A stretch of 64,000 nucleotides of DNA from Pseudomonas entomophila (lineage in GTDB: Bacteria > Pseudomonadota > Gammaproteobacteria > Pseudomonadales > Pseudomonadaceae). This document shows, piece by piece, positions 4,417-10,878 of the stretch (the first letter of the stretch is position 1; each line of letters opens with the position of its first letter). A model generated the notes under the pieces. It saw only the letters and a list, made by a program, of their open reading frames with translations, was not told the DNA's origin and made no database searches. The stretch is taken from positions 868,001 to 932,000 of the forward strand of contig NZ_CP063832.1 of the NCBI RefSeq assembly GCF_023277925.1, read 5' to 3'. Made by a program: the position numbers and the translations under genes.

Positions 4417-5091
4417 ATGCAAAACTACCAGCAACCCCTGCGTGTCGGTGTCGGCGGCCCGGTTGGCTCCGGCAAGACCGCGCTGCTAGAAGCCCTGTGC
4501 AAGGCCATGCGCGACAGCTATCAGATCGCCGTGGTCACCAACGACATCTATACCAAGGAAGACCAGCGCATCCTCACCGAAGCCGGTGCCCTGGAGCCCG
4601 AGCGCATCGTCGGTGTCGAGACCGGTGGTTGCCCGCACACCGCGATCCGCGAGGACGCCTCGATGAACCTGGCCGCTGTCGAGGCGCTGGCACGCAAGTT
4701 CGGCAACCTCGAAGTGATCTTCGTTGAGAGTGGCGGCGACAACCTCAGTGCGACATTCAGCCCCGAGCTGGCCGACTTGACCATCTATGTGATCGATGTC
4801 GCCGAAGGCGAGAAGATCCCGCGCAAGGGGGGGCCTGGTATCACCAAGTCGGACTTCCTGGTGATCAACAAGACCGACCTGGCGCCGTACGTCGGCGCCT
4901 CATTGGAGGTGATGGAGCGTGATACCCGGCGCATGCGCCCTGAACGGCCGTGGACGTTCAGCAACCTGAAGCGGGGCGACGGCTTGCAGGCGGTGATCGA
5001 TTTCATCGTCGAGCGAGGCATGCTCGGCGAAAGACGTGGCGGGGGCGAGGGTGTGCCATCCGGCAATTTAACGGGCCAAGAGCCTGCGTAA
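4417..5091 (+). CDS. ureG: Urease accessory GTPase UreG with a C-terminal extension
   Basis: A SIMIBI-class GTPase. The P-loop is [14 protein letters not shown], the nickel motif is [13 protein letters not shown], a G3-like stretch is [15 protein letters not shown] and the base motif is NKTDLAP. It powers nickel insertion into urease. The protein is 224 residues, whereas UreG is usually about 204-210. Family homology seems to stop at [11 protein letters not shown], and the last 17 or so residues are a Gly/Arg-rich tail ending [10 protein letters not shown] ribosome site GAGGA lies 7 bp before the ATG. It is the last gene of the urease operon. Confidence 0.97.
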
Positions 5092-5242
5092 CGGTTGGCT
5101 GACGAGGTCTCCTACGTGGTTGCCGGCATCTGTGCTCAATCAATGGGTGGCACAGGGTTGTACAGTTTTATAGTGCTGAACGCGCAGTGGTGCCCTTCAC
5201 GTCCAGCACATGGCGGCGGAGCCCTCATTCAAGGAGAGAACT

Positions 5243-5491
5243 ATGAAAAGGATCGTATCGATCGCACTATTGGCCACTGTAAGCCTGGCCCAGATGACCT
5301 ATGGCAACGAGTACATGCACTCAACTGACCCGGTGATGGCTGTCGCATCACCGTGCAACTGGGGCGATACCATGACGACCGCTGACCTTCGGCCCGTCGG
5401 CTATATTGGCAACATTGCCCCCATCGCATGTACGGAGGGCACGTTTCTTACTGGGGCCGGGCACTGCCAGCCAAGCTTTGAATTTGACTGA
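5243..5491 (+). CDS. Small secreted Cys-containing peptide, copy 1
   Basis: An 82-residue protein with a clear signal peptide (MKRIVSIALLATVSLAQMTYG) and a strong ribosome site AAGGAGAG 6 bp before the ATG. The mature part has three cysteines and ends ACTEGTFLTGAGHCQPSFEFD. The last 21 residues match those of the peptide encoded at 5992 at about 15 positions. No enzyme domain is visible and the family was not recognised. A longer frame starting at 5210 lacks a ribosome site. It is likely periplasmic or secreted; function unknown. Confidence 0.75.
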   Translation: MKRIVSIALLATVSLAQMTYGNEYMHSTDPVMAVASPCNWGDTMTTADLRPVGYIGNIAPIACTEGTFLTGAGHCQPSFEFD

Positions 5492-5991
5492 CCGACTCCG
5501 CGTCTTATGACCTTCATGCACCTGCGTCTGCGAATACCGTTCCCAGGCGTTGGTGTGTTCGTGCTCCTGTCGCTACCACCCACACCCCAGCCAATCGGTA
5601 TCAGCACCTGACCCGACAACACGCGCCAGTGTTTGAAAATGGGCAGTATCGTGCTTCCAGGCTCTGTGCCAACCCTGTCTGAGCGCCTGCTCCAGGCGAG
5701 TGTTGTCGACCCTGTTCCTCATCCGGCCAGAACAGCCAGAGGTGCTGAGCTTAAGCCCAGGCCTGGCGTACGAGCAGCCCAGGGGAAAGTCCTTGTAGGC
5801 TCATCGCTGCGTGAGTTGGTTGGCGGGGATTTTGCCTGCGAAGCTGAGATAAATTTTCGGGGTATTCCTGAGGTTTGAGCTAACGCTTGTGCCGGGGACG
5901 TTGCGTAAAGTTTGTCGGGCTGACGGCAGGGATGGGCAGGATTAATCACCTGTCGCAGTTTGAGTCCCGAAATTTCACCCAGGAAACATGT
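5492..5991. other. 500-bp gap between the two small-peptide genes
   Basis: No gene is supported here. One open frame at 5633-5878 (81 codons) has no convincing ribosome site, no hydrophobic or domain signature and proline/arginine-rich composition typical of chance GC-rich frames. The last 40 bp hold the leader of the second peptide gene. No third copy of the shared C-terminal motif was seen by eye. Confidence 0.5.
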
Positions 5992-6150
5992 ATGAAGAAG
6001 TTCGCACTGATCGCCCTCATCGCAACCGCAGGCCTAATTCCGGTTGCCCATGCCGCTGGGGGGTGGTCGCCTGTTCCGGCGATCCCATGCCCAGAAGGCA
6101 CCTATCTGACAAGTGCTGGACATTGCCAGCCGCCCTTTGATTTCGACTGA
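5992..6150 (+). CDS. Small secreted Cys-containing peptide, copy 2
   Basis: A 52-residue protein. The signal peptide MKKFALIALIATAGLIPVAHA is followed by only about 31 mature residues that contain two cysteines and end PCPEGTYLTSAGHCQPPFDFD. The C-terminal 21 residues repeat those of the peptide at 5243. The ATG at 5992 follows AGGAAAC; an upstream in-frame start at 5887 would place a non-signal extension ahead of the signal peptide and is rejected. The two cysteines could form one disulfide. Family not recognised. Confidence 0.72.
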   Translation: MKKFALIALIATAGLIPVAHAAGGWSPVPAIPCPEGTYLTSAGHCQPPFDFD

Positions 6151-6347: not shown

Positions 6348-7253
6348 GTGGCTTCCTACACCTTGCGTCAACTGAAGTACTTCGTCACCACGGTGGAGGC
6401 CGGCAGCGTCGCCGAGGCATCGCGCCAGCTCTATATCGCCCAGCCTTCGATCTCCACGGCGATCAAGAGCCTGGAAGAGAGCTTCGGTGTCCAGCTGTTC
6501 ATTCGCCATCACGCCCAGGGCGTGTCGCTGACCCCTGGCGGCAAGCGTTTCTACGCCAAGGCCAAGTCGCTGCTGCAGATGGCCCATGAATTCGAGCAGA
6601 ACGCCCTGGCCGACAACGATACCGTGGCCGGCCAGATCGATATCGGCTGCTTCGAGACCGTGGCGCCGTTGTACCTGCCCAGGTTGATCGCGGGCTTTCG
6701 CGAGCGCTACCCAGGGGTGGACATCCGCCTGCGTGACGGTGAACAGCAGGATTTGATTCAGGGGCTGACCGCAGGCACCTTCGACCTGGCCTTTCTCTAT
6801 GACCACGACCTGGACGGCACCATCGAGACCGAGCCGTTGATGCCACCCCAGAAACCCTATGTTCTGCTGCCGGACAAGCACCGTTTTGCCGGGCAGGCCC
6901 AGGTGTCGCTGCGCGACCTGTGCCCGGAGCCGATGATCTTGCTCGACGTGGCGCCCAGCCGCACTTACTTCGTCAGCCTGTTCAACGAGCTGGGGCTGAC
7001 GCCCAACATCGTCTTCAGCTCACCCTCCATCGAGATGGTGCGAGGCATGGTGGGGCAGGGCTTCGGCTTTTCGCTGCTGGTCACCCGGCCCTGCTCGGAG
7101 TTCACCTACGACGGGCAGCGCCTCGTGATGCTGGATATCGTCGAGCCCGTGGCCTTGTCGGGGTTGGCGGCGGCGCACCTCAAGCGTGTGCAGTTGACCA
7201 AGCCGGCGCAGTTGTTCGTGGAGTTCTGCCGGGAGGAACTGGCGCGGTTGTAG
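6348..7253 (+). CDS. LysR-family transcriptional regulator
   Basis: A 301-residue LysR-type regulator. Residues 1-60 form the winged helix-turn-helix (LRQLKYFVTTVEAGSVAEAS, then QPSISTAIKSLEESFGVQLF) and the rest is a periplasmic-binding-protein-like effector domain. The start is GTG at 6348 with GAGAGG just upstream. No divergent target gene is adjacent: the urease and small-peptide genes lie upstream on the same strand beyond a terminator. The target and effector are unknown. Confidence 0.93.
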   Translation: MASYTLRQLKYFVTTVEAGSVAEASRQLYIAQPSISTAIKSLEESFGVQLFIRHHAQGVSLTPGGKRFYAKAKSLLQMAHEFEQNALADNDTVAGQIDIGCFETVAPLYLPRLIAGFRERYPGVDIRLRDGEQQDLIQGLTAGTFDLAFLYDHDLDGTIETEPLMPPQKPYVLLPDKHRFAGQAQVSLRDLCPEPMILLDVAPSRTYFVSLFNELGLTPNIVFSSPSIEMVRGMVGQGFGFSLLVTRPCSEFTYDGQRLVMLDIVEPVALSGLAAAHLKRVQLTKPAQLFVEFCREELARL

Positions 7254-7503
7254 CGCCGATATGGCAGCGCCTGCACCAGGCCGCTCATCGTCCTGTTTCC
7301 GACCACCCGTCGCGCCGTTCGCGCAAATGATCGAACGAACACTGCCTGGCAGGATTCTTCCACTAAGGTGCTAGAGGATCTTGCATGCCTGCATTAGGCG
7401 CGACGCATGGAGCACCGCTTGGGCATGGGCAATATCAATTGGCGCTCGGCCACGCGAAAGCGTACTCACATCACAGGCCATCCAGCATAGAGAGGGTCGT
7501 ACC

Positions 7504-7764
7504 ATGTCGTTGATAGGAGTTTCAGTGCTTGAGATGCGGCAGATGATCGAGCAGGCCTGCCTGCCGGATCGCTGCGAGGTAAGCTGCCCGGACGGCGAAA
7601 ACCTCACCATCCGCCTGGGCCAGGGGCAGAACCTGGACGACTGCCTGACCCTGACCGGCGTTCCGCTCGCCAGCCTCAACAGTTGCCGCGACCTGGTAGG
7701 TTTGGTGACGCAGTTGAAGGCGCAGCGTCAAGCGCATCCATCCGCACTCAAGGCCATCGCCTGA
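7504..7764 (+). CDS. DUF1652 family protein
   Basis: An 86-residue protein starting MSLIGVSVLEMRQMIEQACL. The pattern LEMRQMIEQACLPDRCEVSC, then LTIRLGQGQ and LASLNSCRDLVGLVTQLKAQ matches the DUF1652 family that is common in Pseudomonas. Function is unknown. The open frame continues upstream to 7381, but the ATG at 7504 matches the family start and has GAGAGGG upstream. It appears monocistronic. The 250 bp before it, after the LysR gene, contain nothing else recognisable. Confidence 0.88.
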   Translation: MSLIGVSVLEMRQMIEQACLPDRCEVSCPDGENLTIRLGQGQNLDDCLTLTGVPLASLNSCRDLVGLVTQLKAQRQAHPSALKAIA

Positions 7765-8753: not shown

Positions 8754-9407
8754 ATGCGTGCATTGCGTGTGACCGGCCTGGTAGCCCTGGCCTGGTTGCT
8801 GGTTTCGCTGCCCGCGCGCAGCCAGGTGTTGTTGGCCCTGGTTATTCCGGCACAGCCTTTGAACCTGGCCCTGGACAGCTTCGCCAGGCAGAGCGGCCTG
8901 GCGGTGCTGGTCGACCGGGCGCTGCTGGCCGGGCAACGCTCAAGCCCGGTACAGGGGCGTTACACCGCGCGGGAAGGCCTGCAGCGCCTGTTGCAAGGCA
9001 CCGGTTTGCAAGCCCACTACAGCGGGGCGGGTGGTTTCACCTTGCAGCCAGTGCGCCAGGCAAGGGGGACGGGAAGGGGGCGCGGCAACCCGACAACAAC
9101 GGTGGGCAACAGTTATGCCCTGGCATTGCAACAAGCGGTGGAGCAGGCCTTGTGCAGTTCCGCGCTGACCCGCCCCGGTAGCTATCGGGCGGCCGTGCAG
9201 GTGTGGATCGACGCAGGTGGCCAACTGGTGCAGAGCCGGCTGCTGGCCTCGACCGGCGATTTCCTCCGCGATGCCGAACTGGTCGAACGTTTGCGCGCGG
9301 TGCGCCTGCAACGCGCACCGCCGACATCCCTGGCGCAGCCGGTCACCCTGCTGTTGCGCCCGGTACCCATGGATTGCCCTTTATCGCAAGGAGCTGCGGC
9401 GGCATGA
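8754..9407 (+). CDS. vreA: VreA-like signalling protein (STN domain plus TonB-like C-terminus)
   Basis: A 217-residue protein with a signal peptide (residues 1-23), a secretin/TonB short N-terminal domain around residues 30-98 (IPAQPLNLALDSFARQSGLA) and a TonB C-terminal-like domain around 119-203 (WIDAGGQLVQSRLLASTGD). It lacks the beta-barrel of FecA-type receptors. This architecture, with a sigma factor and FecR-like gene directly downstream, is that of P. aeruginosa VreA. The ATG at 8754 has AGGAGG upstream; the longer frame would start inside the PHO box. Its stop overlaps vreI (ATGA). Confidence 0.78.
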   Translation: MRALRVTGLVALAWLLVSLPARSQVLLALVIPAQPLNLALDSFARQSGLAVLVDRALLAGQRSSPVQGRYTAREGLQRLLQGTGLQAHYSGAGGFTLQPVRQARGTGRGRGNPTTTVGNSYALALQQAVEQALCSSALTRPGSYRAAVQVWIDAGGQLVQSRLLASTGDFLRDAELVERLRAVRLQRAPPTSLAQPVTLLLRPVPMDCPLSQGAAAA

Positions 9408-9946
9408 ACACACCTCGGGACAGTGCGTTACTCAAGCTGTTTCTGAATTCCTACGATGCCCTCAGGCTGCGTCTGAAGCGTCGGTTCGGTTGCGATGACC
9501 TGGCCCATGATGTGCTCCAGGAAACCTACCTGCGGGTCGACCGCATGGAGGCTGTGCACAACCTGCAGAAGCCGGACGCCTATCTGTACCGCATGGCCCT
9601 GAACGTCGCCGCCGACCGCCGCGAGGCCGACGCACGGCTGCTTACCGGGGCCGAGATCGAAGCCCTGCTGCAAGTGGCCGAGGATCAAGACCCGGCGCGC
9701 ATCGTCGGTGGCCAGCGCGAGATTCAGAACCTGCTGGGTGCGCTTTACGAGCTGCCGGCCAGGCGCCGCAGAATCTTTATCGCCGCGCGTCTGGAGGAGG
9801 CTTCGCACCTGGAAATTTCACAGCGTTTCGGCATATCCACGCGCACTGTGGAAAAAGAGCTCAAGGCCGCCCTGGGGCATTGCGCGATGCGTCTGGACCG
9901 AAAAGCGTTCCAGCGGTTCGGTCCAGGGGCGGGAAAACCGTCTTGA
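9404..9946 (+). CDS. vreI: VreI-like ECF sigma factor (FecI type)
   Basis: A 180-residue ECF sigma factor. Region 2 includes CDDLAHDVLQETYLRVDRME and region 4 includes LPARRRRIFIAARLEEASHL with the recognition helix ISTRTVEKELKAAL, as in iron-starvation or FecI-like sigma factors. It overlaps the vreA stop by 4 bp and runs into vreR, giving a three-gene signalling operon. In P. aeruginosa VreI controls hxc and neighbouring virulence genes; here the adjacent hxcWUP genes are the obvious candidates. Confidence 0.82.
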   Translation: MNTPRDSALLKLFLNSYDALRLRLKRRFGCDDLAHDVLQETYLRVDRMEAVHNLQKPDAYLYRMALNVAADRREADARLLTGAEIEALLQVAEDQDPARIVGGQREIQNLLGALYELPARRRRIFIAARLEEASHLEISQRFGISTRTVEKELKAALGHCAMRLDRKAFQRFGPGAGKPS

Positions 9947-9975
9947 TCAATAGTCGACTCTTTCATGTGAGCACC

Positions 9976-10878
9976 ATGGCCCAGATTTCGCCCGATCCCG
10001 ACTTGCAGCGCCAGGCCCAGGCCTGGCTCGTGCGGCTGACCTCCGGCCAAGCCACCGAGGCCGATGCCTGCGCCCTGCGGCAATGGTGCGCGCGCAGCCC
10101 GGCGCATGCCGAAGCCTTCGCCCAGGCACGTCGCTTGTGGCGGCTGCTGGAACCTGCCGCACAGCAGGCCAACCCAGTGATGCCGAGCCTGGGGCGCCGC
10201 GCCTTGCTCGGTGGCGCGGTGGCGGCCACGGCGGCGTTCGTTGCCTGGAACACCGGCCTGTTGGGCGACGCGGATGCCCAGCCGGCGGCCTTCGAGACGG
10301 CATTGGGGGAGCAGCGTCGTGTCGAACTGGCACCGGGGATCGACCTGGAAATGAATGTACGCACTCGTGTAAGCCGCCAGGCTCACGGTATCGCGCTGTT
10401 GGGGGGCGAGATCGAGGTGTTTGCCCGTCATGCCGTGCAGGTGAGCGCGGGCGAGGGGGTGATCAGTGCCGAGCAGGCGCGTTTCAACGTGCGTGAGGAC
10501 GACGACGGCGTCTGCGTCACCTGCCTGAATGGTGAGCTGCGCATTACCGTGCTGGGGCGTGTCGAGGCGTTGCCGGCTGGGCGCCAGCTGCGTTTTGGCG
10601 CCCGGCATATCGGCGAGCCCCAGGCCTTCGACAGCCGCCAGGTGATGGCCTGGCGCGAGCGTATGCTGGTGTTCAACGACGCACCCTTGGCCCTGGTGAT
10701 CGACGAGATCAACCGCTACCGGCCCGGGCGCCTGCTGCTGCTCAACCCATCCCTGGGGCGTCGCCGGGTACAGGCACGCTTGAGCTTCGAGCAGTTGCCC
10801 CAGGCCGCCGAGTTGATTCGCGCCGCCTACGGTGCCCGCTGCCTGGAGTTGCCAGGTGGCGTGGTGCTGGTCAGTTGA
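9976..10878 (+). CDS. vreR: VreR-like anti-sigma factor (FecR family)
   Basis: About 300 residues. A cytoplasmic anti-sigma domain (DLQRQAQAWLVRLTSGQATE, CALRQWCARSPAHAEAFAQA) is followed by a hydrophobic helix (LLGGAVAATAAFVAW) and a FecR periplasmic domain, with TALGEQRRVELAPGIDLEMN and a C-terminal STN-like region (LALVIDEINRYRPGRLLL). The ATG at 9976 lacks a clear ribosome site. A TTG at 9943 overlapping the vreI stop is an alternative that would allow translational coupling. The gene converges on hxcW with an 8-bp overlap. Confidence 0.82.
   Translation: MAQISPDPDLQRQAQAWLVRLTSGQATEADACALRQWCARSPAHAEAFAQARRLWRLLEPAAQQANPVMPSLGRRALLGGAVAATAAFVAWNTGLLGDADAQPAAFETALGEQRRVELAPGIDLEMNVRTRVSRQAHGIALLGGEIEVFARHAVQVSAGEGVISAEQARFNVREDDDGVCVTCLNGELRITVLGRVEALPAGRQLRFGARHIGEPQAFDSRQVMAWRERMLVFNDAPLALVIDEINRYRPGRLLLLNPSLGRRRVQARLSFEQLPQAAELIRAAYGARCLELPGGVVLVS

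What the first reader, a model, noticed from the sequence alone, without database searches (positions are those of the whole stretch)
5243..6150. Two tiny secreted peptides sharing a Cys-containing C-terminal signature
Two exported peptides of 82 and 52 residues, 500 bp apart, end with almost the same 21 residues: (A/P)C(T/P)EGT(F/Y)LT(G/S)AGHCQP(S/P)F(E/D)FD. The rest of the mature parts is unrelated in length and sequence. Strong conservation at the C-terminus with free N-terminal parts suggests a functional tip or recognition tag. I do not recognise the family, and both have good ribosome sites and signal peptides. This is a good candidate for an undescribed small secreted-peptide family.
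Basis: partly seen in the sequence, partly recalled or inferred. Interest (0 to 1): 0.7.

Follow-up and report, generated by a model that had tools for sequence, protein, structure and literature searches.

The report
Secreted Pseudomonas peptides with disulfide tip
Two tiny genes in this Pseudomonas genome belong to a fast-changing, apparently undescribed family of probably exported peptides that share one small loop-shaped tip, which resembles, but is not shown to imitate, an insect hormone-like signal peptide.

Summary
P1 (5243-5491, 82 aa) and P2 (5992-6150, 52 aa) end in 21 residues, 15 of them identical, and relatives exist. Between P1 and P2 the tail codons are near-saturated with silent changes while the residues are kept, so the tail is a selected protein. 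Relatives occur in 16 of 398 genus genomes with a type A profile and 19 of 388 with a sister 'type B' profile (16 credible). Of 23 type A genes, 19 lie just after ureG and 4 beside a START-domain gene. Type B genes use partly the same sites and carry a polybasic site (R-x-[KR]-R in 13 of 16) before a Cys-loop tail. No Pfam or NCBIfam family fits. Best reading: pro-peptides, mostly exported, whose C-terminal one-disulfide hairpin is the working part and acts outside the cytoplasm. The nearest solved sequences are insect growth-blocking (ENF) cytokines, but the [KR] of their consensus is missing, their Pfam model does not fire, one tail profile misses them, and similar loops arise elsewhere. Host mimicry is a testable minority reading (0.2).

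The parts
5243..5491 (+). P1, 'long' type A pre-peptide, 82 aa: signal-peptide-like start (candidate cut after residue 21), variable middle, Cys tail
   Evidence: homologues
5426..5488 (+). P1 C-terminal 21-residue tail (residues 62-82; Cys63 and Cys75), predicted beta-hairpin
   Evidence: alignments A3 and A4; AlphaFold2 strands 67-69 and 75-77, block pLDDT 78-80, whole model 57; codon data
5231..5236 (+). AAGGAG ribosome-binding site of P1
   Evidence: sequence; CATTCAAGGA is shared upstream of 5 of 24 genes; the ribosome-site region is the top upstream motif in a reduced set of 16
5992..6150 (+). P2, 'short' type A pre-peptide, 52 aa; about 31 aa left after the candidate signal-peptide cut
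6085..6147 (+). P2 C-terminal 21-residue tail (Cys33, Cys45)
   Evidence: AlphaFold2 of the 31-aa part, mean pLDDT 72, middle blocks 81-83
5906..5922 (+). possible promoter element, TAAAGT followed by a GTCGGGCTG-like stretch, upstream of P2; seen upstream of other members too, but weakly supported
   Evidence: upstream alignment; top motif in 20 regions but not in a reduced set of 16
4417..5091 (+). ureG, the upstream neighbour of 19 of 23 type A genes
6348..7253 (+). LysR-family regulator gene (GTG start as listed); follows the peptide genes in 11 of 13 ureG-linked type A genomes (SodC between in one) and lies beside the 11 type B genes of alignment A7
   Evidence: Pfam LysR_substrate and HTH_1; synteny

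Best explanation
These are two members of a lineage-restricted family of pro-peptides. Shown: the frames are selected proteins, and the C-terminal tail is the best-kept part while the middle is free. Inferred: (1) the Sec signal peptide takes the chain to the periplasm; (2) the two tail cysteines, 12 residues apart, form one disulfide that closes a small beta-hairpin; (3) in short forms signal peptidase alone leaves a hairpin peptide of about 23-33 residues, while in long forms and in the sister type B a further cut in the variable part (at a polybasic site in type B) frees the tail; (4) the hairpin acts outside the cytoplasm as an effector or signal by binding a partner on another cell or on the envelope. 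A receptor of a eukaryotic host or predator, insects first, is my leading single target, but no target is shown.
For: Homologues: 13 of 398 genus genomes with P2 alone (G000 itself and one spurious hit in G251 included), 16 of 398 with profile A1 (G000 included), 6 named loci out of 35 pattern matches in genomes of 84,980 species. All 23 type A rows of A4 have the two tail Cys. Tail constraint: P1 versus P2 synonymous 11.5 of 13.8 against non-synonymous 7.5 of 49.2 sites changed; long-form orthologue tails dN/dS 0.33, 0.16 and 0.40 against 0.60-1.06 in the middle; short-form tails 0.25, 0.23 and 0.80. A simple -3/-1 rule puts a candidate signal-peptide cut after residue 21 in 19 of 24 members. 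Type B: R-x-[KR]-R about ten residues before the first tail Cys in 13 of 16 proteins; pooled pN/pS 0.13 at the basic site, 0.26 in the tail, 0.53 in the leader (nine signal-less members, 36 non-independent pairs). Both types use the site after ureG: type B in G276 and G024. Predicted hairpin.
Against: Export, disulfide and processing are inferred. The 11 type B members of A7 appear to start without any signal peptide (start chosen by ribosome site and loss of conservation upstream) yet keep the polybasic site and tail, so at least these may act inside the cell or leave by another route. No outer-membrane exit is known. Type A and B tails match each other only weakly (hhalign probability 8.6%), so their common origin rests mainly on position. 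Some pairs show no tail constraint: G390/G157 dN/dS 1.11, G127/G190 short form 0.80 in the tail and 1.68 overall on seven changes; the signal region of two long pairs gives 1.35 and 1.81. AlphaFold confidence is modest (mean pLDDT 57 and 72, pTM 0.28 and 0.29). The shared promoter element did not hold up in a reduced set.
Confidence: 0.55

Rival explanations
1. Host-cytokine mimic: the released hairpin imitates insect growth-blocking/ENF peptides (or the EGF-like hairpin they share) and acts on a receptor of insects or other eukaryotes, altering blood-cell or stress responses.
For: With the family profile, 8 of 13 matches among 177,635 solved sequences are ENF peptides on the tail (E 0.16-1.3), the other 5 matching on the signal-peptide region; with the 31-column tail profile the first five of 11 rows are ENF (E 0.051-0.4). 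hhalign of A4 against three ENF segments: probability 94%, E 1.2e-7 for one comparison; 1 of 400 column-permuted controls scored as high. Position scores with both Cys fixed: 2, 2 and 15 of 20000 permuted profiles reach the real score for the three segments. Foldseek: 4 of 18 rows are ENF peptides, rmsd 1.2-1.5 over 17-18 columns. Spacing fits the published consensus C-x(2)-G-x(4,6)-G-x(1,2)-C up to its last place in 18 of 23 type A tails (consensus from PMC6439351, passages). Layout: signal peptide, variable pro-part, C-terminal hairpin; R-x-[KR]-R (the furin consensus, recalled) before the tail in type B. One named carrier is P. entomophila.
Against: The [KR] after the second Cys is Q in 22 of 23 and N in 1 of 23 type A rows. 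Pfam PF02425 gives no match at the peptide genes and none over its cut-off in 8 of 8 genomes (in which 150 of about 190-255 candidates per genome were scored). The 22-column tail profile A5 gives no ENF row at E 10. All Foldseek E-values are above 1, its score uses sequence too, and unrelated loops are also listed, among them an insect metalloproteinase inhibitor at rmsd 0.4 over 15 columns. ENF was picked after the fact as best of a large library, which the permutation controls do not correct. An unrelated bacterial repeat protein has the same loop and scores higher (27.6 against 24.5). Type B finds Sushi domains instead and matches ENF poorly (8.8%). Carriers are not only insect pathogens: RIT 623 comes from a pond (PMC7398229, abstract start in the listing).
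Confidence: 0.22
2. Bacterium-directed peptide: a pheromone or narrow antibacterial peptide processed from a precursor, with the tail as receptor-binding or killing part.
For: Tandem, fast-changing copies, patchy presence, a leader plus cleavage-like site plus tail in type B, and a regulator gene often adjacent.
Against: In the neighbourhoods I read and the ten neighbours given to Pfam I saw no gene that looks like an immunity protein, peptidase-transporter or receptor; this was not an exhaustive search. The tail is acidic, unlike most pore-forming bacteriocins (general knowledge).
Confidence: 0.2
3. Envelope housekeeping: a small periplasmic disulfide peptide that helps a neighbour such as the secreted START-domain protein, the SodC enzyme or metal handling near urease.
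For: 4 of 4 non-ureG type A genes lie beside the START gene; a SodC-like gene turns up at both sites, in the ureG-LysR spacer of L044 (Pfam), L083 and L114 (by likeness) and beside START in L079 and L165 (by likeness); 19 of 23 type A genes follow ureG.
Against: The START gene is present with no family member within its 1.5-kb flanks in 8 of 8 other genomes tested, and two ureG-LysR sites lack the peptide (G025, G364); patchy presence and a free middle do not look like the partner of a conserved enzyme.
Confidence: 0.18
4. Not genes: chance open frames whose tails look alike.
For: Both are very short, third-position GC is low (0.67 and 0.60 against 0.81 in ureG and 0.87 in lysR), and no library knows them.
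Against: Conserved frame, start, stop and tail in many species, and near-saturated silent change with kept residues between P1 and P2.
Confidence: 0.02

Closest known systems
Insect growth-blocking peptide / paralytic peptide / plasmatocyte-spreading peptide family (ENF peptides, Pfam PF02425)
   Same: Small size, two Cys with 11 residues between them, C-x2-G-x6-G-x-C-x-P-x-F pattern with T and P at shared places, predicted short hairpin; C-terminal position in a precursor (insect side recalled).
   Different: Bacterial; Q or N instead of K/R after the second Cys; no N-terminal ENF; acidic E/D-F-D end; not matched by PF02425.
EGF C-terminal loop and Sushi/CCP loops
   Same: C-x2-G-Y-x3-G pattern of type B tails (Sushi domains lead; EGF_MSP1_1 in 3 of 11 and Sushi in 2 of 11 members at best E 0.011 and 0.046).
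   Different: Those are parts of larger multi-disulfide domains; each single-loop match is at chance level.
Repeat protein of another proteobacterium (L146, 1050-codon open frame) with tandem C-P-A-G-T-x6-G-V-C-Q-P units
   Same: Same loop spacing and CPxGT...CQP letters.
   Different: Internal tandem repeats in a large frame, not a small pre-peptide.

Membership tests
Insect GBP/ENF cytokines | Motif C-x(2)-G-x(4,6)-G-x(1,2)-C | tested here: met
   18 of 23 type A tails fit C-x2-G-x6-G-x-C; the five that lack a Gly are RIT623 long, G346/Cy-639 long and short, G329 and G104. By eye 15 of 16 type B tails fit x4/x2 (G278 has S for the first G). Motif from PMC6439351 passages
Insect GBP/ENF cytokines | [KR] directly after the second Cys | tested here: not met
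   Q in 22 of 23, N in 1 of 23 type A; V or I in 16 of 16 type B
Insect GBP/ENF cytokines | Match to Pfam PF02425 | tested here: not met
   0 of 8 genomes over cut-off and no row at the peptide genes at E 10, with 150 candidates scored per genome; not among the families of 24 members by hmmscan at E 1
Insect GBP/ENF cytokines | Single-disulfide short beta-hairpin | tested here: inconclusive
   Predicted strands in the loop, modest confidence; Foldseek rows with rmsd 1.2-1.5 but E above 1; VIA-align could not align chains under 30 residues
Insect GBP/ENF cytokines | N-terminal E-N-F of lepidopteran peptides | tested here: not met
   not seen in any of the 24 aligned proteins
Insect GBP/ENF cytokines | Cytokine activity through an insect receptor | not testable with these tools
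   needs peptide and haemocytes
Sec-exported small peptide | Cleavable N-terminal signal peptide | tested here: inconclusive
   candidate cut after residue 21 in 19 of 24 by a simple rule without control; no predictor run; the 11 type B of A7 lack it
Bacteriocin with immunity gene | Adjacent immunity or dedicated export gene | tested here: inconclusive
   none recognised in the neighbourhoods read; only ten neighbours were given to Pfam

The most novel reading that the evidence does not exclude
Pseudomonads of this lineage make eukaryote-style prohormones (signal peptide, acidic pro-part, furin-like R-x-[KR]-R site in type B, one-disulfide C-terminal hairpin) that are cut, possibly by the host's own convertases, and act as growth-blocking-peptide/EGF-like ligands on insects or other eukaryotes. 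It would be bacterial peptide-cytokine mimicry of insects, comparable in kind to plant-peptide-hormone mimicry by plant pathogens.
Probability: 0.2. Interest if true: 0.92.

Novelty: new variant of a known kind. Interest (0 to 1): 0.57.

Why it matters
Small exported peptides are easily missed by annotation. This family has a clear constrained tip, fixed genomic sites and a sister type with a prohormone-like cleavage site, so its function can be tested directly in laboratory strains of Pseudomonas. If the tip acts on insect or other eukaryotic receptors it would open an unexpected route of bacterium-insect signalling; if not, it is still a new family of probably processed bacterial disulfide peptides.

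Tried and rejected
Chance frames: rejected by the codon data. Recent duplication or gene conversion of the tail: rejected, silent sites are near-saturated between P1 and P2. Plasmid or phage cargo: no tblastn match of P2 in 72,556 plasmid or 50,697 phage records at E 1; none confirmed among 28 pattern matches in viral contigs. Known family: Pfam, NCBIfam and PHROGs gave nothing convincing for 24 members (best row PHROGs E 0.0088 in 1 of 24 members), nor Pfam and NCBIfam for 11 type B members. Spread outside the genus: profile A4 over 299 genomes of the phylum matched 55 at E 0.1, of which only G000 is convincing; of 11 other matched loci that I read, one (L146, tandem loops) was of interest and the rest looked like chance. 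P1 as query over 95 relatives (59 of the genus, G000 included) found nothing beyond G000.

Shared promoter element: TAAAGT plus GTCGGGCTG was the top motif in 20 of 24 upstream regions (12.9 bits at width 20 against 8.3-8.8 in six shuffles), but the real run had 60 restarts and the shuffles 25, and related sequences were kept. A fairer rerun with 16 regions and equal restarts put the ribosome-site region on top instead (10.5 bits against 7.8-8.7 in ten shuffles). I therefore hold the promoter element as a weak lead only. Flagellar sigma-28 or ECF boxes: considered by eye against consensus recalled from memory, no fit.

Papers: searches (listings with abstract starts) and passages of PMC6439351 showed no description of this family and no bacterial GBP; only open-licence papers are held, so this is no proof of absence. 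The link between type A and type B first came from a profile that already held G276, a type B member, so it is partly circular.

Rows dropped before counts: 19 of 388 genomes matched; G003 and G093 (stops in frame) were treated as chance and G170's as a broken copy, leaving 16. The 16 type B proteins are another set: 11 of A7 plus G077, G311, G146, G024 and G276; G045, nearly identical to G077, was left out. One search's 16 of 398 include G000 and G276 (type B). One search's 13 include G000 and G251, whose hit had stops and was not counted as a member. The signal-peptide model left out 4 of 24 members with odd starts; a control, SodC of P. guariconensis, scored 15.3 bits, above some type B members, so likeness of signal peptides is weak evidence.

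Full report
1. What was checked. P1 (5243-5491) and P2 (5992-6150) are present as described. The window lies in a 5.76-Mb single-contig genome; five of the six named relatives are Pseudomonas records. P1 against its own genome returns only itself and P2 (E 9.8e-7). The last 21 residues agree at 15 of 21 places.

2. Is it a gene family? With P2 alone 13 of 398 genomes of the genus match, G000 and one spurious hit included; with a 15-row profile 16 of 398, G000 included. P1 alone found nothing beyond G000 among 95 relatives, 59 of them in the genus. The named collection gave 6 confirmed loci out of 35 pattern matches: P. entomophila COR5, Pseudomonas sp. GD03858, RIT623, P. guariconensis, P. sichuanensis and a record called Pantoea sp. 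Cy-639. 24 proteins were aligned: 23 of what I call type A and one, G276, of type B. Both tail cysteines are in all 23 type A rows; Q follows the second in 22 and N in 1.

3. Selection. Between P1 and P2, 11.5 of 13.8 synonymous tail sites changed against 7.5 of 49.2 non-synonymous; G170's own pair behaves alike (12.0 of 14.8 against 9.0 of 48.2). Among the long orthologues of G000, G127 and G190 tail dN/dS is 0.33, 0.16 and 0.40 against 0.60, 1.06 and 0.73 in the middle; short tails give 0.25, 0.23 and 0.80. Against this, G390/G157 tails give 1.11 (G390/G145 0.27), and the very close G127/G190 short pair 1.68 overall on seven changes. Third-position GC is 0.43-0.77 in the 24 genes against 0.81 (ureG) and 0.87 (lysR), as in young or fast-changing genes.

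4. Where the genes sit. In 6 of 6 named loci the genes lie between ureG and a LysR gene. Over the set, 19 of 23 type A genes, in 13 genomes, lie after ureG; the LysR gene follows in 11 of these 13, and in G102 and G329 it was not in the stretch fetched. 4 of 23 (G145, G390, G245, G157) lie beside a START-domain gene (Pfam START E 8.5e-12), with another LysR gene nearby in 3 of 4. The START gene has no family member within 1.5 kb in 8 of 8 other genomes. Two ureG-LysR sites lack the peptide (G025, G364). Six genomes carry a long-plus-short pair in the same order.

5. The sister type. Upstream of the same LysR gene, in genomes where LysR is not linked to ureG, lie 60-62-residue proteins with an acidic leader, a stretch like L-S-R-R-K-R-G, and a tail C-x2-G-Y-K-x-[IV]-G-D-[DE]-C-V. 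A profile of 11 of these matched 19 of 388 genomes, 16 credible. Five further proteins with a signal-peptide-like start were read: G077, G311, G146, G024 and G276 (G045 is nearly identical to G077). R-x-[KR]-R stands about ten residues before the first tail Cys in 13 of these 16 proteins. Pooled over 36 non-independent pairs of nine signal-less members, pN/pS is 0.53 in the leader, 0.13 in the basic site and 0.26 in the tail. Type B follows ureG directly in G276 and G024, lies about 95 bases past the LysR gene in G311, and is away from these genes in G077, G045 and G146. G157 and G390 carry both types. G170 has a third, broken copy with an in-frame stop beside its type A pair. Type A and B tails align only weakly to each other (8.6%), so I treat them as one system by position and layout; homology is likely but not shown.

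6. Upstream regions. A first motif search suggested a shared TAAAGT/GTCGGGCTG element; a fairer rerun on 16 regions instead put the ribosome-site region on top. The element (5906-5922 before P2) stays a weak lead, and P1's version is poor.

7. Structure and resemblance. AlphaFold2 gives the P1 tail a hairpin (strands 67-69 and 75-77, blocks 78-80; whole model 57, pTM 0.28) and the P2 mature part a similar small one (mean 72, pTM 0.29). Against solved sequences the family profile gives 13 rows: 8 ENF peptides on the tail and 5 chains on the signal-peptide region; the 31-column tail profile has ENF in the first five of 11 rows (E 0.051-0.4); the 22-column profile has no ENF row. hhalign gives 94% for the tail against three ENF segments, and 1 of 400 permuted controls is as high; with both Cys fixed 2, 2 and 15 of 20000 permuted profiles, and 2, 2 and 13 of 20000 shuffled segments, reach the real score. 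These controls do not correct for having picked ENF as the best of a library. Foldseek lists four ENF chains among 18 rows, all with E above 1; VIA-align reported no match, ENF chains being too short for it. The published insect consensus C-x(2)-G-x(4,6)-G-x(1,2)-C-[KR] (PMC6439351, passages) fits 18 of 23 type A tails but for its last place. PF02425 does not match. An unrelated bacterial repeat protein has the same loop, and type B tails resemble Sushi loops. So the loop is easy to invent.

8. Verdict. A real, apparently undescribed family of small pre-peptides with a constrained two-Cys tail; most likely exported and acting outside the cytoplasm (0.55). Mimicry of insect cytokines is a minority reading (about 0.2) that a haemocyte test would settle.

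Noticed in passing
   Followed up: partly
L044:6739-7251; L083:7140-8108 and L114:610-1170 (frames); L079:4347-5282 and L165:477-1340 (frames): A Cu/Zn superoxide dismutase (Pfam in L044; by likeness in the others) lies in the ureG-LysR spacer in three genomes and beside the START gene in two, i.e. at the same two sites as the peptides; its signal peptide resembles theirs.
   Followed up: partly
L192 (G170): Third copy with a family-like signal peptide and a type B tail end but an in-frame stop, beside the intact type A pair: a decayed relative.
   Followed up: partly
L146 (G691:C13): Long open frame (1050 codons) with tandem C-P-A-G-T-x6-G-V-C-Q-P loops, same spacing as the type A tail, in another proteobacterium.
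   Followed up: no
window 8757-10875: STN-domain protein, sigma-70-family factor and FecR-type regulator genes in a row, a likely cell-surface signalling set.
   Followed up: no
window 7489-7764: DUF1652 gene downstream of the LysR gene (Pfam E 1.7e-23).
   Followed up: no
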